A stretch of DNA of 64,000 bases from a virus. A program made the position numbers and the translations under genes. The first letter of the stretch is position 1. The number at the start of each line of letters is the position of its first letter. Location: positions 1 through 64,000 of IMG/VR virus record IMGVR_UViG_3300027869_000006. One strand, 5' to 3'. Positions 2,531 to 63,632 of this stretch are shown piece by piece. Under the pieces are notes generated by a model. That model made no database searches, had not been told where the DNA came from, and saw only the letters and a list, made by a program, of their open reading frames with translations.

Positions 2531-2634
2531 ACCAGGTACTTTCTGGATGATACGTACTATAGAATACTGTCGCATGGCCTGTAGCACCAATCTAAACAGA
2601 AGTGCAGATATCAAAAGACAAGAAGGATGAGGGA

Positions 2635-3378
2635 ATGTATCTAGATTTGGAAGGTATCATGAGAAAAGTGCCACCCCCGCCTGATTTGCCAGTTTCCCAG
2701 ACGGAGAATCCGTACTGGGATATTGTGCGTACCATCCCTGGCAATGGCATTGACTGGAAATATGACCGTATATGGGCACCTGATTGGACTGCTACGTACT
2801 TCGATGATGATGGAAGACTCTTGCCGCCGAAGCAGCACATTGACCGCAATGAACTGAATGGAGAGTATACCTGGGCAATCCCCGATCCTATCTCACTTGA
2901 GTTTGTGGCAAAGTGGCTTGCACCCAAAGCGGTAGAAATGGGAGCAGGGACAGGGTATTGGTGTTGGCAACTAACCCAACTAGGGGTTGATATGCTCGCA
3001 TTTGATAAGAAGCCACCAAATAAGACTATCAATCACTGGCATAGCCCGCGTACCCCCGAAGGGGATGCCTTCTCAGGTGAGATGCGACAAACGTACCATG
3101 AAGTCCGGCAAGGCACGCCCTTACAACTTCGCCGAATGCTTGATCGCACCTTGTTTCTCAGTTGGCCGCCAATGGACACGATGGCCGCCCTTTGCCTGAA
3201 GCACTACCAGGGCAAGCGAGTGGTGTATATCGGTGAGGGTGACGGCGGCTGTACTGCCACTTCTGCCTTTTTCGAGCAACTAGAAGCAGAGTGGAAAGAG
3301 GTAGCAGAGCATAGGATTGTGCAATGGTGGAGTATCCATGACTACATCACCGTCTATGAGAGAGAGAAAGATGTATGA
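2635..3378 (+). CDS. Probable SAM-dependent methyltransferase
   Basis: The ORF is open from GTG 2602, but ATG 2635 has the better ribosome-binding site (AAGGATGAGG), giving 247 residues. Near residues 100-125 it has a Rossmann SAM-binding motif I (EMGAGTGYW) followed by an acidic strand end (MLAFDKK). Further on, LSWPPMD resembles the [DNS]PP[YW] catalytic motif IV of amino-methyltransferases, and a GEGDGGC loop follows. The substrate could be DNA, RNA, protein or a small molecule and cannot be told from the sequence. The stop overlaps the next start by ATGA. Methyltransferase fold likely; DNA as substrate is only a guess. Confidence 0.6.
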   Translation: MYLDLEGIMRKVPPPPDLPVSQTENPYWDIVRTIPGNGIDWKYDRIWAPDWTATYFDDDGRLLPPKQHIDRNELNGEYTWAIPDPISLEFVAKWLAPKAVEMGAGTGYWCWQLTQLGVDMLAFDKKPPNKTINHWHSPRTPEGDAFSGEMRQTYHEVRQGTPLQLRRMLDRTLFLSWPPMDTMAALCLKHYQGKRVVYIGEGDGGCTATSAFFEQLEAEWKEVAEHRIVQWWSIHDYITVYEREKDV

Positions 3379-6267: not shown

Positions 6268-7389
6268 ATGCGTAAAATGTTTCAGTATCGGATTCTCCCA
6301 ACGAAGAAGCAAGAAAAGAAGCTGAACGAGACGCTCGAAGAGTGTCGTTGGCTGTATAACCATCTGCTTGCTACTCGCAAGGATACCTATGAGCAGCATG
6401 GGGAAAGTCTCTCGCTCTATGAGCAACAAGCCACCTTTCCGATACTGAAACAGGAGCGCCCCTCCCTTCAAGATGTCCATTCCCAGGTGTTGCAAAATGT
6501 CGCAGTGCGCGTTGACCTGGCCTTTAAAGCCTTCTTTCGTCGCATCAGGGAGCGTGCTGAAGAACCTGGGTTCCCCCGCTTCAAGGGCTATAGGCGCTAC
6601 GATAGTTTCACGTTTCCGCAATCGGGCTTTTCCATCACACATGACAACCGTATCTGCCTCTCCAAGATTGGCAGTATCAAGATGGTCTACCATCGCCCGA
6701 TCAAAGGGAAGATCAAAACCCTCACTATCCGCAGAAGTAGTACAGGCAAGTGGTATGCCTCGTTCTCGTGTGAGGTAGAACCTCTTCGTTTGCCAGAACG
6801 CCCCGAACAGGTTGGGGTTGACGTAGGACTCAAGACCTTTGCCACGCTTAGTACAGGTGAAGAGATTGCGAACCCTAGGTTTTTCCGCAAGGAAGAGAAG
6901 GCATTGGCAAAAGTCCAACGCAGACACTCCAAACTTGCCAAAGGCTCCCCCGAACGGCACAAGCACCGCAAGGTAGTCGCCCGCGTCCATGAACGTATCA
7001 CTTTTCGACGGGAGAACTTCACCCATCAGCAAAGCCGTCGCATTGTCGATAGCTTCGGCGTGATCTGCGTCGAGGACTTGCAGGTCAACCGAATGGTACA
7101 TAACCATTGTCTTGCTAAAAGTATTGTAGATGCCTCGTGGTCGGCATTTTTCAGTCAACTTTCTTGCAAAGCGGAAGAAGCTGGTAGGAAGTACGTGGCT
7201 GTGAACCCGGCCTATACGAGTCAAACATGCAACACCTGTGGACATCGCCAGCAGATGCCTTTGGATATCCGTGTATTCGATTGTCCGTGCTGCTCTGTTC
7301 ATATCGATCGAGACTTCAATGCTGCCTTGAATATTCGTGCCGTGGGACTACACGGCCTGGGCTTGTCCCTAGAAGCCCCCGTGCTTTAG
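6268..7389 (+). CDS. tnpB: TnpB, RNA-guided RuvC nuclease of an IS605-type element
   Basis: The 373-residue product has the usual TnpB layout: N-terminal HTH_OrfB-like region (QYRILPTKKQEKKLNETLEE), the beta-barrel part, then a RuvC-like nuclease with all three catalytic positions: Asp185 (GVDVGLKTF), Glu269 (ICVEDL) and Asp near 347-349 (HIDRDFNAALNI). A zinc ribbon sits between the last two (CNTCGH...CPCC). TnpB cuts DNA next to a short target motif guided by an RNA made from the element's right end and helps to retain the element. The stop codon lies inside the right-end hairpin, as expected when the guide RNA overlaps the gene. It seems intact, unlike the second copy at 56-57 kb. Confidence 0.93.
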   Translation: MRKMFQYRILPTKKQEKKLNETLEECRWLYNHLLATRKDTYEQHGESLSLYEQQATFPILKQERPSLQDVHSQVLQNVAVRVDLAFKAFFRRIRERAEEPGFPRFKGYRRYDSFTFPQSGFSITHDNRICLSKIGSIKMVYHRPIKGKIKTLTIRRSSTGKWYASFSCEVEPLRLPERPEQVGVDVGLKTFATLSTGEEIANPRFFRKEEKALAKVQRRHSKLAKGSPERHKHRKVVARVHERITFRRENFTHQQSRRIVDSFGVICVEDLQVNRMVHNHCLAKSIVDASWSAFFSQLSCKAEEAGRKYVAVNPAYTSQTCNTCGHRQQMPLDIRVFDCPCCSVHIDRDFNAALNIRAVGLHGLGLSLEAPVL

Positions 7390-10498: not shown

Positions 10499-11695
10499 AT
10501 GACTACCATCTCAGAAGAAACTACCGTTGAAGTCATCCCTGGTATACCGTCCTTCTACGTCACCGTTGAGCAAAAAGCCCTGGTCAATGCCTTAACTGCT
10601 CTTGCACCTGCCGTTCCTAAGAGACCGAGTCTCCCTATTCTCTCCAACGTGAAGATCGAGGCAAGTACCCTTGGAGTGAAGCTCGCCGCGACCAACCTGG
10701 AACTCTACATGAGTACCCGTCTCCCTCTCTCAACCGTGCATGTGCGCCTCTATGGAGCATGTACCACGAACTACAAAGAGTTCGTGGCACTTGTCAAACC
10801 CTTGAAGGGACAGTTCCTGACACTTAGTTTCCAGGATGAGATGCTGACTGTTGAGACGGCCCATCTAACCGTTACCCTCGCGACTCTGCCCGTTGAGGAG
10901 TACCCCGCCGATCCGAAGGGGTTGCACGAGAAGAAAACCTGGGCCGTACCCCAGACGCTGACCTTACCCGTTGCGACCTTGCGGCATGCCGTGAGCATGG
11001 TAGAGTATGCCGCCTCAAATGACTTCAATCGGCCTGTCTTCACGGCCATTCGGATGAAGCTTTCTCAGGATGTGCTTGACCTGGCCGCCGCCGACCAAAA
11101 ACGCATGAGTATCATGCGCGAGCAGATTGAGGGTGCAGGCACTTGGAATGTTGATCTGCTTCTTCCCGTGGTGAGCTTGTGCGAAGTCCTGAAGAAGCTA
11201 CCGAAAGCGGGAGACGTGACCCTCTCCGCTGCATCTCCGGTGTCTGCTACCCTCACGTGTGGGCCGATAGTTGCCCATCTCCGGCAAGTGGAGGGCACCT
11301 ATCCCAATGTGGAAGTGGTTATTCCGCGTGAGGATGCTGACGTGACGACCGTCCTGGTGGAGCGAGCAGTCTTGAAGCAAGCACTTGAAACGGTTGCATC
11401 CATTGTGAAGGACTCCGGCAAGTGTGTCCATCTCCATTTCATGCAGGAGCGTATCGAGGTCAAGGCGCAACGCGATGAGATGAAGGAACCGATGGTGGTT
11501 CAGGTTCCTGCCGAGGCGACGGGACAAGAGATGGAAGTCATCTTCCATTGGCGGAACGTGATGGATATCGTGCAAGCCTCTTCCTATGGGTCGCTCCAAT
11601 TCCATCTACAAAGTCCGCACCATGCAGTTCGGATCACCATTCCTGAGTGTCCTGGGTTTGTTGGGGTGACGATGCCGATGAATACTCATCGCTAA
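10499..11695 (+). CDS. dnaN: DNA polymerase III beta subunit (sliding clamp)
   Basis: A 398-residue beta-clamp homologue; bacterial clamps have about 365-390 residues. Recognisable stretches are RPSLPILSNVKIEA with LAATNLEL in domain 1, SNDFNRPVFTAIRMKL with LAAADQKRM in domain 2, and the terminal GVTMPM in the place of the usual PMR-type end. The clamp is a ring-shaped dimer that tethers a polymerase to DNA. No polymerase gene is in the window, so it may serve the host replicase or a phage polymerase encoded elsewhere. ATG 10499 lies three bases after the preceding stop, and GAGGAG is the ribosome-binding site. A hairpin follows at 11739. Confidence 0.92.
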   Translation: MTTISEETTVEVIPGIPSFYVTVEQKALVNALTALAPAVPKRPSLPILSNVKIEASTLGVKLAATNLELYMSTRLPLSTVHVRLYGACTTNYKEFVALVKPLKGQFLTLSFQDEMLTVETAHLTVTLATLPVEEYPADPKGLHEKKTWAVPQTLTLPVATLRHAVSMVEYAASNDFNRPVFTAIRMKLSQDVLDLAAADQKRMSIMREQIEGAGTWNVDLLLPVVSLCEVLKKLPKAGDVTLSAASPVSATLTCGPIVAHLRQVEGTYPNVEVVIPREDADVTTVLVERAVLKQALETVASIVKDSGKCVHLHFMQERIEVKAQRDEMKEPMVVQVPAEATGQEMEVIFHWRNVMDIVQASSYGSLQFHLQSPHHAVRITIPECPGFVGVTMPMNTHR

Positions 11696-11800: not shown

Positions 11801-12418
11801 ATGTCCACCGTTGATATTCCTCATTTTTCTTTGCATGAACAATTCGCAGATCATGGGTTTGCTACTTGTCATGGTGCCCTCCCACTCCCGCGCACGTGGG
11901 CCGCTCAGCTACGGAACTATGCCAGTAACTTCCTTGATGGCACCATGACCCAACCGCTCGCTCAACTCTTCCCCTGGCTCTATTCCTGGTACTGCGATGT
12001 GGTTGCACACCTGGTGGATGTCACGTTCCAGACCCAGGTCGCCCTTGCCCCACTTGACCGTTGTCTGACCCTGCACCTTGGACTTGGTCGAGGGTATCAA
12101 ACCAAAGAAGAGCGAGAGAGAGACCTGGCAGGCCCCGCGACCAAGCCTGGGGTCAGCGGCGTCCTGTTTGCCTGTCATCTACCGGAGACCCACGGAGGCT
12201 CCTTGGAACTCCATCTCCCGAAACAGCCACCGGCGCTGATTGCCCCCATCGAGGGGTTGCTGGTGTTGTTTGATGGCAGTGTCACGAAGTATCTGCTGCG
12301 GCCGGTCATGCGGGCGCTTGATGTGTGCTATGCCGTCGTGATTGAGTTCGCACATGATCTGCTGACGTTGCCTGTGCCACATGTAGAGGCAGGGATAGTG
12401 GCAAGGGTACTCATCTAG
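11801..12418 (+). CDS. Possible degenerate 2-oxoglutarate oxygenase-like (double-stranded beta-helix) protein
   Basis: ATG 11801 follows GGAGGCGGC; 205 residues. The second half recalls the core of Fe(II)/2-oxoglutarate oxygenases of the TET/JBP sort: GVLFACHLPETHGGSLELHL, then IAPIEGLLVLFDGS and LLRPV. The expected HxD motif and the distal histidine are not visible (Tyr or Lys lies where the latter is expected). So it would be inactive as an oxygenase, use other ligands, or only resemble the fold. The neighbours, a ParB/Srx-fold protein and a TET-associated glycosyltransferase, make the idea attractive. By sequence alone it is unproven. Confidence 0.35.
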   Translation: MSTVDIPHFSLHEQFADHGFATCHGALPLPRTWAAQLRNYASNFLDGTMTQPLAQLFPWLYSWYCDVVAHLVDVTFQTQVALAPLDRCLTLHLGLGRGYQTKEERERDLAGPATKPGVSGVLFACHLPETHGGSLELHLPKQPPALIAPIEGLLVLFDGSVTKYLLRPVMRALDVCYAVVIEFAHDLLTLPVPHVEAGIVARVLI

Positions 12419-12454
12419 TCTCGATGGGATGTGAGATGGAAGGGAGGAGGACGT

Positions 12455-13183
12455 ATGGTCAGAGATATGCAGCAAGGAGTGAGAGAAGATAGTCTCTCTG
12501 CTCTACTTCCTCTTGAGGTCATTGCACTTGACCAACTTAAGCCTCATCCACGCAACTATCGAAGTCATCCCGAAGATGAGATTCTTCATCTCATGGAAAG
12601 TATTCGTGCCAACGGGATTTACAAGAATATCGTGATTGCCAATGAAGGGACGATCCTGTGTGGTCGGGGAGTGACTATAGCAGCAGAGCGACTTGAATAT
12701 ACCCATGTCCCTGTCTATCGTGCTCCCTATGGGCCGAATGATCCACGCGCCATCAAACTCCTCGTCAGTGACAATGAGATTAGCCACTTAGCTGAAAATG
12801 ACGATAGAGCACTCACTGAACTTCTCAAAGAACTGAAAGACTCTGAACTTGACCTGCTTGGGACTGGCTACGATGAAATGATGCTTGCCAATCTTGTCAT
12901 GGTGAGTCGGCCCGCCTCAGAGATTGCTGATTTAGATGCTGCGGCGCAGTGGGTAGGAATGCCGGAGTATAACGATGAAGGGGATGAAGAAAGCGCCGAG
13001 TTCTCCGTGATTGTGAATTTCGCTACTGAGGAACATTGTCGGGAGTTTTGTCGTCGTCTTACTATAGATGCCAGTAGTATCCTGATGCGGAAAATACGCA
13101 GACCGATCTGGTGGCCGTCGCAAGTACGTGATGATCTGCTCTCTCTACGATTTACTGCGGAGAAACAGGGAGAAGAGAAATGA
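12455..13183 (+). CDS. ParB/sulfiredoxin-fold protein
   Basis: ATG 12455 follows GGAAGGGAGGAGG; 242 residues. The N-terminal 100 residues form a ParB-like nuclease (Srx-fold) domain: VIALDQLKPHPRNYRSHPED, then the loop TILCGRGVTIAAERLEYTHV that binds phosphate or nucleotide in the family. There is no HTH of plasmid-partition ParB, so this is not a partition protein. Stand-alone domains of this type are common in phages next to DNA methyltransferases and base-modification genes. The C-terminal part has an acidic stretch and a separate alpha/beta region. The stop overlaps the next start (ATGATGA), so it is probably co-translated with the glycosyltransferase. Confidence 0.8.
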   Translation: MVRDMQQGVREDSLSALLPLEVIALDQLKPHPRNYRSHPEDEILHLMESIRANGIYKNIVIANEGTILCGRGVTIAAERLEYTHVPVYRAPYGPNDPRAIKLLVSDNEISHLAENDDRALTELLKELKDSELDLLGTGYDEMMLANLVMVSRPASEIADLDAAAQWVGMPEYNDEGDEESAEFSVIVNFATEEHCREFCRRLTIDASSILMRKIRRPIWWPSQVRDDLLSLRFTAEKQGEEK

Positions 13184-14094
13184 TGAACCCCGTTCTCCCG
13201 CGCTATCCCGTCTATATTCCTAGTAAGGGTCGGGCTGAACAAGGGTTAACCGCGCGTTATCTCGTTGCTAGTGGCGTGCCATTTCATCTCGTCGTCGAAC
13301 CACCGGAAGCGGATGCCTATGCAGCACAGTTTGGGGCTGACCGTCTGCTCGTACTTCCATTTCATGATCTTGGCTTAGGGAGTATTCCAGCACGTAATTT
13401 CATTTGGGAACACGCGAAAGCGAGTGGAGCAGAGCGGCACTGGACACTCGATGATAATATGCGCTGCTTTTATCGGCGCTTTAAAGCGAGGCGTCTCTAT
13501 TGCGATGCAGGGATCGCGCTCCGCGTCTGCGAAGATTTTACCGACCGCTATGAGAATATCGCTATCGCGGGCTTAAACTACGCGATGTTCGTGCCAGATA
13601 AAGAGCGTATCCTTCCCCTCCAAATCAACTGCCATGTCTACTCCTGTATGCTGATCCTGAATAGCCTGCCGTATCGCTGGCGTGGCCGCTATAACGAAGA
13701 CACCGATTTCTGCCTGCAGGTACTAGCGAATGGGTGGTGTACTATCCTTCTCAATACCTTCGTCGTGGAGAAAATTGCGACAATGACGATGAAGGGTGGG
13801 AATATGACCACGCTCTATCAAGGCGATGGACGCCTCAAGATGGCTCGCTCTTTAGAGCGAGCCTGGCCAGGTATAGTTGAAACGAAGCGGCGCTTCCAGC
13901 GACCACAACATGTTATTAAAGATGGCTGGAAGAAGTTCGATACCAAACTGAAGTTAAAACCCGGTATTGATTTATCACGATTAGAGTCTAATGAATATGG
14001 CATGTCACTCGTGCAGGTTGCGGATTCGATCAAAAGCCCGCGTCTCCAGGGTCTGCTCGATGAGTGGCGAGAGACGCACGAGGAGCCGCTATGA
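13180..14094 (+). CDS. TET-associated glycosyltransferase-type enzyme (GT-A fold)
   Basis: A 304-residue protein. The start YPVYIPSKGRAEQGLTARYL and the later FHDLGLGSIPARNFIWEHA match what I know of the TET-associated glycosyltransferase family. HWTLDDNMRCFY holds the metal-binding Asp motif of GT-A enzymes, and RYNEDTDFCLQVLANGW the usual acidic active-site stretch. In phages and fungi these enzymes are thought to add sugars to oxidised bases in DNA. This gene follows a ParB/Srx-fold gene and a possible oxygenase-like gene, which fits DNA hypermodification. The sugar and the base are unknown. It is coupled to the genes on both sides by ATGA overlaps. Confidence 0.75.
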   Translation: MMNPVLPRYPVYIPSKGRAEQGLTARYLVASGVPFHLVVEPPEADAYAAQFGADRLLVLPFHDLGLGSIPARNFIWEHAKASGAERHWTLDDNMRCFYRRFKARRLYCDAGIALRVCEDFTDRYENIAIAGLNYAMFVPDKERILPLQINCHVYSCMLILNSLPYRWRGRYNEDTDFCLQVLANGWCTILLNTFVVEKIATMTMKGGNMTTLYQGDGRLKMARSLERAWPGIVETKRRFQRPQHVIKDGWKKFDTKLKLKPGIDLSRLESNEYGMSLVQVADSIKSPRLQGLLDEWRETHEEPL

Positions 14095-14435
14095 GACGAA
14101 ATACTAGTCACACCCGTGGCACACCTCGCCAGAGTGGTGGCTACCTCTTAGAGGACTCCTGGGTGGATTATTCCGATGGCCAGTCCGTCACCTACTCCAC
14201 CCATGCACCAGACCCGATCCCACTCGGTATCGTCAAGCTGGAACGGGATGCCTCGCTCTCTCCCGATGGGCCGTATGCATTGTACGTGGTGGTCCACGTC
14301 AAGAAGCGCAATGACTGGGGAGCCATCCAGCAGTTCGATATCTGGAAACCGTTATCGCAGAAAAGTCCCTATCGATTGGAGGATGCACGGGCGTACCTGG
14401 AGCAGGCCGTACGAGGCGGGAGGATGAGTTCATGA
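14091..14435 (+). CDS. Unknown protein between modification cassette and terminase
   Basis: ATG 14091 overlaps the glycosyltransferase stop (ATGA), with GAGGAGC as ribosome-binding site. The 114-residue product is beta-rich in the centre (DPIPLGIVKLERD, YALYVVVHVKKRNDWG) with a helical C-terminus. No family recognised. Coupling suggests co-expression with the glycosyltransferase, so a small accessory protein of the modification cassette is possible. Confidence 0.55.
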   Translation: MRRNTSHTRGTPRQSGGYLLEDSWVDYSDGQSVTYSTHAPDPIPLGIVKLERDASLSPDGPYALYVVVHVKKRNDWGAIQQFDIWKPLSQKSPYRLEDARAYLEQAVRGGRMSS

Positions 14436-14456: not shown

Positions 14457-15032
14457 ATGCCTGAAGACTACAACACAACATCGCTCCCACGCGTATTGAG
14501 GAAACGGCGGCGTGGCCAACGATTGACTGCCGAGGAGAAGCATCTCGCTCAACAAAAGTTCCTCGACTCCTTCAAGCTCAATGCGAATATCACCGTTGCG
14601 TGCATGCAAGCAGGCATTGATCGTTCGCAGATTTACCGCTGGCAGGAAAAAGATCAACAGTTCAGCTTCCGGTTCAATCAAGCGGAAGCTGAAGCCAATG
14701 ATATGCTACTTGCGGCTGCCTGGCGACGTGGCGTGCAGGGGGTGGAGAAAGCCGTCGTCTCGATGGGCAGACAGGTCTTTGTCGAGGAGGAACTGCCCAA
14801 TGGGACAAAGATACGCAAGCCACTCATGGAGCGAGAATATAGCGATGCCGTCCTCCTGAGACTCATGTCCTACCGTATTCCAGGTTTCCGTGAGAAGCAG
14901 CAGGTGGAAATGAGTGGGAGTCTTGAAGTTTTCCAGGGGGCGCGTGATGCGCTTCTTACTGAGTTAGCGACACTTCCAGATGTTGGTCAAACACACACAG
15001 AAGCTAGCAGTACCGAAGCCAATCCCCTTTGA
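14457..15032 (+). CDS. terS: Terminase small subunit
   Basis: A 191-residue protein with an N-terminal basic stretch and HTH (NITVACMQAGIDRSQIYRWQEKD) typical of small terminase subunits, which recognise the packaging start site on phage DNA and regulate the large subunit. The C-terminal part, with IRKPLMEREYSDAVLLRLM and an oligomerisation-like helix, fits the family. The large subunit gene starts 53 bases before its stop. GGGGAGAGAGATT precedes ATG 14457. Confidence 0.85.
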   Translation: MPEDYNTTSLPRVLRKRRRGQRLTAEEKHLAQQKFLDSFKLNANITVACMQAGIDRSQIYRWQEKDQQFSFRFNQAEAEANDMLLAAAWRRGVQGVEKAVVSMGRQVFVEEELPNGTKIRKPLMEREYSDAVLLRLMSYRIPGFREKQQVEMSGSLEVFQGARDALLTELATLPDVGQTHTEASSTEANPL

Positions 15033-16422
15033 GTTCGCACGGCGTTTTGCCGTGCTTTCCAAAGCAGAGAAACGAGCCTGGGTGCTTGCCCATTGTAATG
15101 ATGAGAAGGCTCTCACCCTGCGCTATACCTGGGCGGCCTGGGCGCGTGAGAAGCAACTCTGGCAAATCGAAGCACCGGAAGATTGGCAAACCTGGCTGCA
15201 ACTCGCCGGACGCGGGTGGGGCAAAACACGCGGTGGCTCTGAATGGGTCATTGAAGAAGCACGTACTGACCCGGAGGGACATATTGCGCTTGTTGGGCGG
15301 ACCGTCGCCGATGTACGCGGGGTAATGGTTGGCGGCAAAAGTGGTATTCTTTCCTGTTCGCCGCCGTGGTTCCGACCGGAATATGAACCATCGAAGCGCA
15401 AGCTGACCTGGCCGAATGGTTGCATTGCTACTACCTATTCAGCGGATCAGCCGGATCAATTACGTGGGCCAGGACATACCAAAGCGTGGGCAGATGAAAG
15501 GGCTGCCTGGCAATACGATGATGCTTGGGATCAATTGCAGTTCGGACTTCGTGAGGGAGCCAAGCCGCAATGCCTGGTCACGACCACGCCACGGGCGACT
15601 AGGGCGATCAAGGAACTCGCGGCTGATGCTGGGACGCATGTCACACGAGGCACGACCTATGAGAATAGGGAGAACCTTGCCCCGAAGTTCATTCGAGAGA
15701 TTGAACGCCGCTATGCTGGCACGCGCCTAGGCAAGCAGGAAATCGAAGGGCGCATCATCGATGATGTTGAGGGAGCACTCTGGAAACGGGAAAGCATGAT
15801 TGAAGCGTATCGGGTGAGAAACTCTCCCTCTCTCATGCGTATCGTGGTAGGTGTTGACCCTGCGGTCTCTGCTGCCGAGGGAAGTGCAGAGACCGGTATT
15901 GTCATTGCCGGCATCACAGAGAACGGACACGCCTATATTCTTGCAGATCGGTCGCTGCGTGGGTCTCCTAACGAATGGGCGGCATCGGTCATTGCTGGCT
16001 ATCATCTCTTTGAGGCAGATCGGGTGATTGGAGAGGTAAATAATGGAGGTGACTTGGTAGAGACAGTTATTCGCAATATCGACTCACAAATTTCCTATGA
16101 GGCAGTGCGGGCCACCCGTGGTAAGTATCTTCGTGCTGAACCCATTGCCTCATTCTATGAGCGAGGACTTGTCCATCACGTTGGAACACTCCCAGAATTA
16201 GAGGATCAGATGGCATCATGGGTTCCTGGGGAGAAATCACCTGATCGGTTGGATGCCTTAGTATGGGCATTGACCAAGCTGCTCTTGCAGTCTGCTCTCC
16301 CACTTGAAGGGTATGAAGTGCCTGTCGCTGAACCCAAACCTGATCTTCTTGAGGTCATGAAGAAACATCAGCTTGATCCATTTGCTTATGCTGAATCTGT
16401 AGGGTTGTTCAATGACTACTAA
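14980..16422 (+). CDS. terL: Terminase large subunit
   Basis: A 480-residue DNA-packaging motor with the expected two domains. ATPase: Walker A-like GRGWGKTRGG near residue 77, Walker B with catalytic Glu in KAWADERAAW, and coupling motif VTTTP. RNase H-like nuclease: VGVDPA near residue 290, then GEVNNGGDLV and PDRLDALVWA with the later acidic residues. The type resembles the Terminase_6 group of HK97-like phages and gene transfer agents. It works at the portal vertex. The ATG lies 53 bases inside terS, so the true start could be somewhat downstream. Confidence 0.95.
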   Translation: MLVKHTQKLAVPKPIPFEFARRFAVLSKAEKRAWVLAHCNDEKALTLRYTWAAWAREKQLWQIEAPEDWQTWLQLAGRGWGKTRGGSEWVIEEARTDPEGHIALVGRTVADVRGVMVGGKSGILSCSPPWFRPEYEPSKRKLTWPNGCIATTYSADQPDQLRGPGHTKAWADERAAWQYDDAWDQLQFGLREGAKPQCLVTTTPRATRAIKELAADAGTHVTRGTTYENRENLAPKFIREIERRYAGTRLGKQEIEGRIIDDVEGALWKRESMIEAYRVRNSPSLMRIVVGVDPAVSAAEGSAETGIVIAGITENGHAYILADRSLRGSPNEWAASVIAGYHLFEADRVIGEVNNGGDLVETVIRNIDSQISYEAVRATRGKYLRAEPIASFYERGLVHHVGTLPELEDQMASWVPGEKSPDRLDALVWALTKLLLQSALPLEGYEVPVAEPKPDLLEVMKKHQLDPFAYAESVGLFNDY

Positions 16423-56125: not shown

Positions 56126-57205
56126 CTAGGCGCGTCCTGCTACAGTAGGCACTTTGACGGGTGCCCGAGAGATATTGATGGCAGCATTGATGTCAGCGTT
56201 CATCGACATGCCGCACTTGACACAACAGAAGGAGACTTGACTCTTGCGGTTCTCTTTCGCACAGTGCCCACAAGCAGAGCACGTTCGAGACGTATTGCGG
56301 GGGTCTACCGTGTGTAACGACACACCAGCAAGAGCAGCCTTATACGAGAGGAATTGACGAAGTTAAGCAAAGGCCCAGGATGTAAAGCGATTGCGCTGAG
56401 AACGTCTAACCGTGCTATCGGTGCGTTTCCGAATGTGCCTGAGTTCTTCAATCGCTATTCCTTGTTTGTTGGCCTTTGCTTTCGCAATGATCCGTTTGGA
56501 GATCACATGATTGGTATTGCGCTTGAACCTGGCTTCTTTGCCAGAGAGCTTCTTGAGATGCCGTTTGGCGGATTTCGTGCCGCGCTTTTGCAAACGTTGA
56601 CGCAAGGCGTGCATACGTGTACGCACCTTCTCAACCTGCTCACCGCTAAAGGTGTCCCCGTCACTGTCGGTCGCCAGGTTGACGATGCCAAGATCGATGC
56701 CAAGCGTCTCAGTCACTTCATCGGGCGTAGGTTCTGGAACATCAAGCGTGACAGCCAGGTAGAAGGTACCATCACGCCAAATCAAATCGGCCTGTCCTTT
56801 GATCTTGTCCATACGGGCTTGCTGATAGCCACCAATGCGGAAGGGCACAAGTACCCGTCCAGTGGTTGTCAAGAGGGAAACGGTAGTGAGTCCTTTGAAG
56901 GACATCACGCGGGGATCATAGACAATGGCACCTCTGGCATCAAACGTTGGCATGATACTCTTGTCGCGCTTGTAGGCTTCGGTCGCTTTGCTAATACAGC
57001 GGATGGCGAGTTGAGCAGGCAGATTGTACCACTTGCGCAAATAGCCATAGACCAGCTTTTGCAGTGCAAACTTATTGGCACTCTTCTCCAGAAAGGCGAT
57101 TTGCGCCACATAGTTTGCCCCTGCATTGAAGCAATCCATCGTCAACAACAAGGCTTTGTATTGTTCTTCAGTTGGGGCAAGCTTCAAGAGCATCGTTTGT
57201 TTCAT
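56126..57205 (-). pseudogene. tnpB: tnpB with one nonsense codon
   Basis: On the minus strand the frame from ATG 57205 (KQTMLLKL) runs to TAA at 56363-56365 and then on without a stop to 56126. The stop follows RFTSWAFA and precedes LRQFLSYKAALAG, where intact TnpB proteins have a Gln, so a single C-to-T change (CAA to TAA) explains it. RuvC residues (GIDLGIVNLA, IAIEELRHIR, CGMSMNADINAAINI) and the zinc ribbon (CSACGH...CVKCG) are otherwise intact; the first 280 residues alone would lack the third catalytic Asp. The protein would be about 359 residues. Confidence 0.85.
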
Positions 57206-57211
57206 AGACAT

Positions 57212-63562: not shown

Positions 63563-63632
63563 TGGTGCCGGTGGCAGGAAATGAGCCTGCGCCTCCGGGT
63601 TTGTAGCCCGGCGCTCTCTGAGCTTCACCGGC
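63563..63632 (-). tRNA. tRNA-like gene, anticodon ACA, encoded CCA
   Basis: On the minus strand a cloverleaf of 70 bases. The acceptor GCCGGTG/CACCGGC is followed by A and CCA. The D arm GCTC-AGA-GAGC has a loop of only three bases. The anticodon arm is CCGGG-CTACAAA-CCCGG, with T33 and anticodon ACA (reads UGU, Cys). The T arm is GCAGG-CTCATTT-CCTGC. The flanking consensus AGCTCAG...AGAGCGCCGGGCT and AACCCGGAGG is excellent. The shortened D loop and the altered T loop (CTCATTT for TTCRANY) make function doubtful; it may be a degenerate phage tRNA. Confidence 0.55.

What the first reader, a model, noticed from the sequence alone, without database searches (positions are those of the whole stretch)
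11801..14435. Candidate DNA base-modification cassette
Seen: four coupled genes, a double-stranded beta-helix-like protein, a ParB/Srx-fold protein, a glycosyltransferase with LDDN and NEDTDF motifs, and a 114-residue unknown. Known: TET-associated glycosyltransferases and ParB-like domains occur with TET/JBP oxygenases in phage hypermodification clusters. Odd: the oxygenase-like protein shows no HxD...H ligands. Either this phage modifies bases by another chemistry, uses an oxidation done elsewhere, or the first gene is not an oxygenase. The methyltransferase-like gene at 2635 may also contribute.
Basis: partly seen in the sequence, partly recalled or inferred. Interest (0 to 1): 0.75.

Follow-up and report, generated by a model that had tools for sequence, protein, structure and literature searches.

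The report
Phage sugar-transferase with obligate partner domain
This phage carries a sugar-attaching enzyme of a family that decorates viral DNA, always paired with a small unnamed helper domain, yet the phage fragment shows no known enzyme to make the chemical handle the sugar would attach to, so what is being sugar-coated is an open and testable question.

Summary
The four genes at 11801-14435 are real. The 205-residue first gene is an orphan: nothing supports an oxygenase beyond a faint resemblance, and it is absent from relatives. The unexpected result is the partner. The last ~62 residues of the ParB protein are an unnamed domain (here 'MPEF', after its W-x-G-M-P-E-F motif). It is found beside, or fused to, 194 of 203 distinct TAGTs of this clade: C-terminal on ParB, stand-alone, or N-terminal on TAGT. 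A separate scan for the domain alone led back to TAGT in 57 of 58 loci. AlphaFold packs the fused pair as one confident unit (pLDDT 91, pTM 0.89). One contig places MPEF-TAGT in a DNA-hypermodification operon (TET, amino-acid:DNA transferase, kinase). Here, and in nearly all other large contigs, TET and thymidylate-synthase-type hydroxymethylase are absent. Most likely this is a DNA-glycosylating module with an unidentified acceptor; virion-protein glycosylation is the main rival. It belongs to the 'solitary TAGTs' noted in 2026 as unexplained. New variant of a known kind.

The parts
12455..13183 (+). ParB-like protein with a C-terminal MPEF domain (242 aa); partner gene of the TAGT
   Evidence: PHROG 620 E 3e-25 and PHROG 498 (ParB + DNA methyltransferase) E 7e-23; Pfam ParB_N E 0.018, below cut-off; homologues directly upstream of TAGT
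12941..13150 (+). MPEF domain (unnamed in the libraries searched; W-x-G-M-P-E-[FY] ... W-[YFW]-P, about 62 aa)
   Evidence: alignment A6; associated with 194 of 203 distinct TAGTs; no Pfam or NCBIfam family
13180..14094 (+). TAGT glycosyltransferase (304 aa), GT-A type, invariant DDN and RWRG.YNEDT
   Evidence: PF20691 E 1.4e-46, 159.5 bits against cut-off 27.5; PHROG 842 E 4e-41; alignment A1
14091..14435 (+). 114-aa protein of unknown function, translationally coupled to the TAGT; not conserved in relatives
   Evidence: ORF and 4-bp overlap; no Pfam, PHROG or NCBIfam match; no relatives near other TAGTs
11801..12418 (+).
14457..15032 (+). terminase small subunit-like gene downstream of the module (context)
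   Evidence: PHROG 4044 E 8e-26
14980..16422 (+). terminase large subunit (context; TerS/TerL often follow the module in relatives)
   Evidence: PF03237 E 7e-23, PF17289 E 7e-11; neighbour clusters
10499..11695 (+). sliding clamp (context, upstream)
   Evidence: PF00712 E 5e-24

Best explanation
The genes at 12455-14094 encode a two-component glycosyltransferase module: a GT-A enzyme (TAGT) and a small MPEF domain that is its dedicated subunit, here carried on a ParB-like protein. Shown by sequence: the pairing, its three architectures, its independence from the 205-aa gene, and the absence of recognised acceptor-making enzymes in the contig. Shown by prediction only: in a fused relative the two domains form one rigid unit. 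Inferred: the MPEF lobe positions the acceptor or holds the enzyme on its target, ParB (when present) tethers it to DNA, and the enzyme transfers a sugar from a UDP-sugar to phage DNA shortly before packaging, protecting it from host nucleases. The acceptor would be a base hydroxyl made by an unrecognised phage or host enzyme, or by one missing from this incomplete contig.
For: TAGT profile match. T2/T6 TAGT adds the second glucose to glucosylated hydroxymethylcytosine in DNA (PMC13216743 introduction; PMC13390438). MPEF lies within 1.5 kb upstream of 194 of 203 distinct TAGTs, 179 of them within 150 bp; 5 more are at contig edges. Without the loci fetched by MPEF itself: 83 of 87 viral and 41 of 45 bacterial-contig TAGTs. 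A scan for MPEF alone returned TAGT next to it in 57 of 58 loci. Fused on one chain in 6 viral and 9 bacterial-contig loci, and in degenerate form in Aeromonas phage 65, Kuja and Vibrio phages. Joint fold pLDDT 90.7, pTM 0.89, with the GT matching GT-A enzymes. L104: TET - amino-acid:DNA transferase - P-loop kinase - MPEF - TAGT; the L149 prophage also carries TET. The ParB half is related to ParB-DNA methyltransferase fusions. Sugar-supply genes (epimerase/UXS-like dehydratase, UDP-glucose dehydrogenase) lie beside TAGT in relatives.
Against: No TET/JBP in G000 or in any other record of 25 kb or more that was searched. No thymidylate-synthase/hydroxymethylase gene in G000 or the 24 IMG/VR contigs tested. 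The single TS in each of Aeromonas 65, henriette and Kuja keeps the Asn of a thymidylate synthase rather than the Asp seen in T6 dCMP hydroxymethylase, so no hmC route is visible there either. The T6 TAGT is only distantly related to this clade and has no MPEF. The module often sits among packaging and head genes, and FkbM-type methyltransferases or extra glycosyltransferases are inserted in it, which would also suit protein glycosylation.
Confidence: 0.52

Rival explanations
1. The module glycosylates a virion or packaging protein (capsid, portal, tail or terminase), not DNA. MPEF would recognise the protein substrate, and the neighbouring FkbM methyltransferases, second glycosyltransferases and dehydratases would tailor the glycan.
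For: No acceptor-making enzyme in most carriers. Genes sit beside terminase, portal and head genes, for example in Vibrio phage 1.076.O between portal and head morphogenesis genes. FkbM and GT1 genes are inserted between MPEF and TAGT. The best solved-structure match is a protein (hydroxylysine) galactosyltransferase, though all GT-A enzymes score similarly. Phage-encoded capsid glycosylation has been proposed elsewhere (PMC11256854).
Against: MPEF-TAGT lies in a DNA-hypermodification operon in L104 and beside TET in L149. A ParB-type DNA-binding partner is frequent. The only characterised family activity found in the readable literature is on DNA.
Confidence: 0.28
2. The TAGT extends or caps a base modification whose first step is done by an enzyme outside this contig or by the host, as T6 TAGT extends a glucose already on DNA.
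For: G000 is a linear IMG/VR record with no end repeats, possibly a fragment. T6 TAGT acts on an already glucosylated base.
Against: No first-step enzyme in the other 24 IMG/VR contigs, 25 to 107 kb, tested for TET, TS-type hydroxymethylase and PF13640 oxygenase. Fragments cannot exclude it.
Confidence: 0.12
3. The 205-aa gene is a degenerate 2-oxoglutarate oxygenase that has become a structural or regulatory subunit of the module.
For: The stretch GGSLELHLPKQPPALIAPIEGLLVLF aligns by hhalign with prolyl-4-hydroxylase-like oxygenases slightly better than 30 shuffles.
Against: 2% probability; no family match up to E 10; no relatives in any collection; not near any other TAGT.
Confidence: 0.05
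4. The enzyme glycosylates a host surface polymer (lysogenic conversion or superinfection exclusion).
For: GT-A fold close to polysaccharide synthases. An integrase-family protein is encoded.
Against: Placement beside terminase, a DNA-binding-type partner, the TET operon in L104, and occurrence in T4-like Aeromonas phages.
Confidence: 0.05

Closest known systems
T2/T6 TAGT (beta-glucosyl-HMC-alpha-glucosyltransferase, PF20691; gentiobiosyl-hydroxymethylcytosine)
   Same: Same Pfam family and GT-A fold class (PMC13216743).
   Different: Distant: E 5.6e-5 to this clade's profile. T6 has no MPEF partner in the 45 kb examined, and its TAGT lies next to a dCMP hydroxymethylase (Asp type), which this phage lacks.
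TET/JBP - ADDT - kinase hypermodification operons of phages (L104 here)
   Same: The same kind of MPEF-TAGT pair is the last part of that operon in L104.
   Different: The window's contig has none of the TET, ADDT or kinase genes.
'Solitary' TAGTs (288 of 753 phage genomes with these glycosyltransferases; PMC13216743)
   Same: TAGT without alpha- or beta-glucosyltransferase; function unknown.
   Different: The passages of that paper read here name no partner. Here an almost invariable partner domain with three architectures is described.
ParB-DNA methyltransferase fusions (PHROG 498) and phage ParB-like proteins (PHROG 620)
   Same: The N-terminal ParB-like half matches both.
   Different: Here ParB is coupled to a glycosyltransferase through MPEF rather than to a methyltransferase.

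Membership tests
TAGT (PF20691) | Profile match above the curated cut-off over the whole domain | tested here: met
   159.5 bits against 27.5, profile 1-205 of 205
TAGT (PF20691) | GT-A fold with the acidic metal/sugar-nucleotide motif | tested here: met
   Invariant D91-D92-N93; AlphaFold model of a relative matches GT-A enzymes
TAGT (PF20691) | Association with a TET/JBP dioxygenase, the origin of the name | tested here: not met
   None in 109,768 bp. Positive control: the search finds TET in L104's contig. The contig may be incomplete.
T-even-type hmC glucosylation | dCMP hydroxymethylase (thymidylate-synthase family) | tested here: not met
   PF00303 absent from G000 and 24 IMG/VR relatives
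T-even-type hmC glucosylation | Sugar on DNA bases | not testable with these tools
   Needs nucleoside mass spectrometry
2OG-Fe(II) oxygenase / TET-JBP (205-aa protein) | HxD...H iron ligands | tested here: not met
   Only H-x-[DE] is HVE at residue 194, near the C-terminus, with no His after it
2OG-Fe(II) oxygenase / TET-JBP (205-aa protein) | Profile similarity to the family | tested here: not met
   No Pfam match up to E 10; hhalign probability 2%
2OG-Fe(II) oxygenase / TET-JBP (205-aa protein) | Double-stranded beta-helix fold | tested here: inconclusive
   Single-sequence model pLDDT 34; no homologues to build an alignment
ParB/Srx N-terminal domain | Profile match | tested here: met
   PHROG 620 E 3e-25; Pfam ParB_N itself below cut-off (15.5 of 26.3 bits)
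ParB/Srx N-terminal domain | CTPase, nuclease or DNA-binding activity | not testable with these tools
MPEF-TAGT module (defined here) | MPEF domain adjacent or fused to TAGT | tested here: met
   window 12941-13150 immediately before TAGT at 13180

The most novel reading that the evidence does not exclude
MPEF-TAGT modules glycosylate DNA that carries no TET- or hydroxymethylase-derived handle: either a canonical base directly, or a handle made by an enzyme class not yet known. That would be a widespread oxidation-independent DNA glycosylation system with its own specificity subunit.
Probability: 0.2. Interest if true: 0.85.

Novelty: new variant of a known kind. Interest (0 to 1): 0.6.

Why it matters
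Solitary TAGTs are common (288 of 753 glycosyltransferase-bearing phage genomes, PMC13216743) and unexplained. Finding that this clade has one dedicated partner domain, across phages of many bacterial phyla, gives the question a handle: co-express the two parts and ask what they glycosylate. If DNA, phages use a sugar coat whose chemistry is unknown and that host defences must cope with. If protein, a family named for DNA modification has been misnamed in many of its members. It also warns that the annotation 'beta-glucosyl-HMC-alpha-glucosyltransferase' in Aeromonas, Vibrio and Tenacibaculum phages is probably only transferred by homology.

Tried and rejected
Oxygenase role of the 205-aa protein: sequence, profile, structure and homologue searches all failed. 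The one weak hit, Salmonella phage Arash, looks like a chance match to one of a row of small phage proteins. 'TET absent' first rested on a search with no positive control; repeated with a set that rang in L104. C5-methyltransferase as a first step: only 2 of 37 contigs. PF13640 oxygenase: 0 of 30, control rings. TS annotation as evidence of hydroxymethylation: checked by the Asn/Asp residue and rejected for the isolates; this residue rule is from general knowledge, and a dUMP hydroxymethylase in Kuja is not excluded. Mycobacterium phage Tweety as a TET control: no PF12851 match. Literature on ParB plus glycosyltransferase plus terminase: nothing specific. Iyer 2013 and Burke 2021, the main TAGT/TET papers by recollection, are not held, so an earlier mention of the ParB or small-domain link there cannot be excluded. 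A regular-expression count of downstream terminases was too crude and is not used. A first oxygenase alignment for hhalign picked wrong-strand ORFs and was redone.

Full report
OBSERVATION. The window is the first 64 kb of a 109,768-bp linear IMG/VR phage record. The block at 11801-14435 is as described: a 205-aa ORF, a ParB-like ORF, a glycosyltransferase and a 114-aa ORF, the last three overlapping by 4 bp at each junction, between a sliding clamp (10499-11695) and the terminase genes (14457-16422). LDDN and NEDTDF are present. The ORF list gives earlier non-ATG starts; ATG 11801 and ATG 12455 are the better-supported starts because each has a GGAGG shortly upstream (read by eye).

THE GLYCOSYLTRANSFERASE. 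Protein 13180-14094 matches PF20691 (TAGT) at E 1.4e-46 over the whole profile and PHROG 842, labelled beta-glucosyl-HMC-alpha-glucosyltransferase, at E 4e-41. It is the only TAGT in the contig. Among isolated phages there are 24 records, mostly Aeromonas and Vibrio.

THE PARTNER. In the loci fetched by TAGT similarity a ParB-like gene almost always lies immediately upstream, and in some loci the profile of that gene hit the TAGT protein itself. Following this, the constant element is not ParB but the last ~62 residues of the ParB protein (W-x-G-M-P-E-[FY]...W-[YFW]-P; alignment A6), called the MPEF domain here. It occurs C-terminal on ParB, as a stand-alone gene of about 75-148 aa, or N-terminal on TAGT. 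By six-frame ORF search 194 of 203 distinct TAGTs have it within 1.5 kb upstream on the same strand, 179 of them within 150 bp. Five more are at contig edges. Of the other four, L103 and L137 have it just downstream, L176 has it 1.7 kb upstream with another gene between, and L157 is a truncated match. That total includes loci fetched by MPEF itself; without those the figures are 83 of 87 (viral) and 41 of 45 (bacterial contigs). The reverse test was a collection scan with MPEF alone: of 58 distinct loci, 51 have TAGT at +1, 6 have it within two genes, and the last is at a contig edge. All 216 MPEF profile hits in 2.08 Mb of fetched DNA lie within 2.5 kb of a TAGT; this last figure is weakened by the loci having been chosen for one or the other. 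MPEF has no Pfam or NCBIfam family. Limits: only the 80 nearest loci per scan were examined, so the rule holds for this clade, not for all PF20691; and the MPEF profile was built iteratively on these loci.

STRUCTURE. A natural fusion (L081, 373 aa) modelled with 126 aligned relatives gives pLDDT 90.7 and pTM 0.89, with high confidence across MPEF (residues about 21-70) as well as TAGT. The high pTM means the two parts are predicted in a fixed arrangement. The best solved-structure matches are GT-A glycosyltransferases, in line with the GT-A assignment for T6 TAGT in PMC13216743. That the window's separate ParB-MPEF and TAGT proteins assemble the same way is inference.

WHAT SUPPORTS DNA AS SUBSTRATE. 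T2/T6 TAGT adds a second glucose to a glucosylated base in DNA. L104 reads TET/JBP (PF12851), amino-acid:DNA transferase (PF18724), P-loop kinase (PF18751, just below cut-off), MPEF, TAGT, a recognisable hypermodification operon. The Winogradskyella prophage locus L149 has a fused MPEF-TAGT, a further gene that looks like a glycosyltransferase, a TET and a ParB fragment. The ParB half of the window protein is related to ParB-DNA methyltransferase fusions (PHROG 498).

WHAT DOES NOT FIT. No TET/JBP was found in G000 or in any other record of 25 kb or more that was searched; the method is shown to work by L104. PF13640-type oxygenases: 0 of 30, with control. Thymidylate-synthase-family genes: absent from G000 and 24 other IMG/VR contigs, present in Aeromonas 65, Kuja and henriette, where each is annotated thymidylate synthase and keeps the Asn where T6 dCMP hydroxymethylase has Asp. 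C5-methyltransferases: 2 of 37. Pfam scans of the predicted genes of the whole contig (proteins above 760 aa and a few edge genes left out; one table cut at 25 of 36 families) show no recognised base-modifying enzyme. So the hydroxyl acceptor is unaccounted for in this phage and in most carriers examined, with the caveat that many contigs are fragments. Neighbours in other loci look like glycan supply and tailoring: an Epimerase-family SDR in 13 loci, a UDP-glucose dehydrogenase, FkbM methyltransferases, a GT1, and radical SAM/SPASM proteins. These suit either a DNA-borne or a protein-borne glycan.

THE FIRST GENE. The 205-aa protein has coding-like composition but no relatives in IMG/VR, GTDB genomes or phages, no family match, no usable structure model, no iron ligands, and only a faint hhalign resemblance to prolyl-4-hydroxylase-like oxygenases (2%). 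The homologue scans need short exact peptide matches, so distant relatives could be missed. It should not be counted as part of the module on present evidence.

MECHANISM. Most likely a GT-A enzyme with a dedicated MPEF lobe, held on DNA by ParB where that domain is attached, transferring a UDP-sugar to an acceptor on phage DNA around the time of packaging. Pairing and anatomy are shown; the joint fold is predicted; substrate, sugar and timing are inferred. The main rival is virion-protein glycosylation.

NOVELTY. The family is known, and its solitary members are explicitly unexplained in the 2026 literature. The partner domain and its near-perfect association were not found in the papers that could be read; the two key earlier papers are not held, so priority is uncertain. 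Rated a new variant of a known kind.

Noticed in passing
window 2602-3378: 258-aa protein, weakly methyltransferase-like (Methyltransf_23 E 0.077) and a clear member of PHROG 19090 (E 1e-35, unknown function), with a GAGTG motif and a later SWPP motif; nothing ties it to the TAGT module.
   Followed up: partly
G000 64001-109768, probably 97732-99384: The rest of the contig encodes a Ro60-type protein (TROVE E 2e-42, Ro60 vWA E 2e-45), unusual for a phage. The gene was assigned by eye.
   Followed up: no
window 6268-7389, window 56363-57211 (minus strand), G000 82394-83599: Three IS605 OrfB/TnpB-type proteins in one phage contig (families; genes assigned by eye).
   Followed up: no
L046, L070, L085, L096, L114 near TAGT: Radical SAM, in L114 radical SAM/SPASM, proteins adjacent to MPEF-TAGT (a short fragment only in L096); a candidate source of an unknown acceptor or sugar modification.
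   Followed up: partly
L191, L208, L217, L236, L176, L225 between MPEF and TAGT: FkbM methyltransferase (L191, L208), GT1-type glycosyltransferase (L217), another methyltransferase (L236) or unclassified genes inserted between the MPEF gene and TAGT.
   Followed up: partly
L014, L015, L016, L018, L021, L022 ParB genes: ParB proteins of about 353-359 aa that match the window ParB twice, suggesting two ParB domains in tandem before MPEF.
   Followed up: no
L068, L126, L028: Two TAGT genes side by side in one locus (L028: both MPEF fusions in Vibrio phage Kuja), possibly adding two sugars.
   Followed up: no
window 63563-63632 minus strand: ARAGORN calls a tRNA-Cys with the unusual anticodon ACA.
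   Followed up: no
Aeromonas phages 65, phiAS5, Ah1, Aeh1; Vibrio phage Kuja; Tenacibaculum phage PTm1: RefSeq name 'beta-glucosyl-HMC-alpha-glucosyltransferase' on proteins of this clade; in phage 65 no dCMP hydroxymethylase was found, so the name is probably a transferred one.
   Followed up: partly
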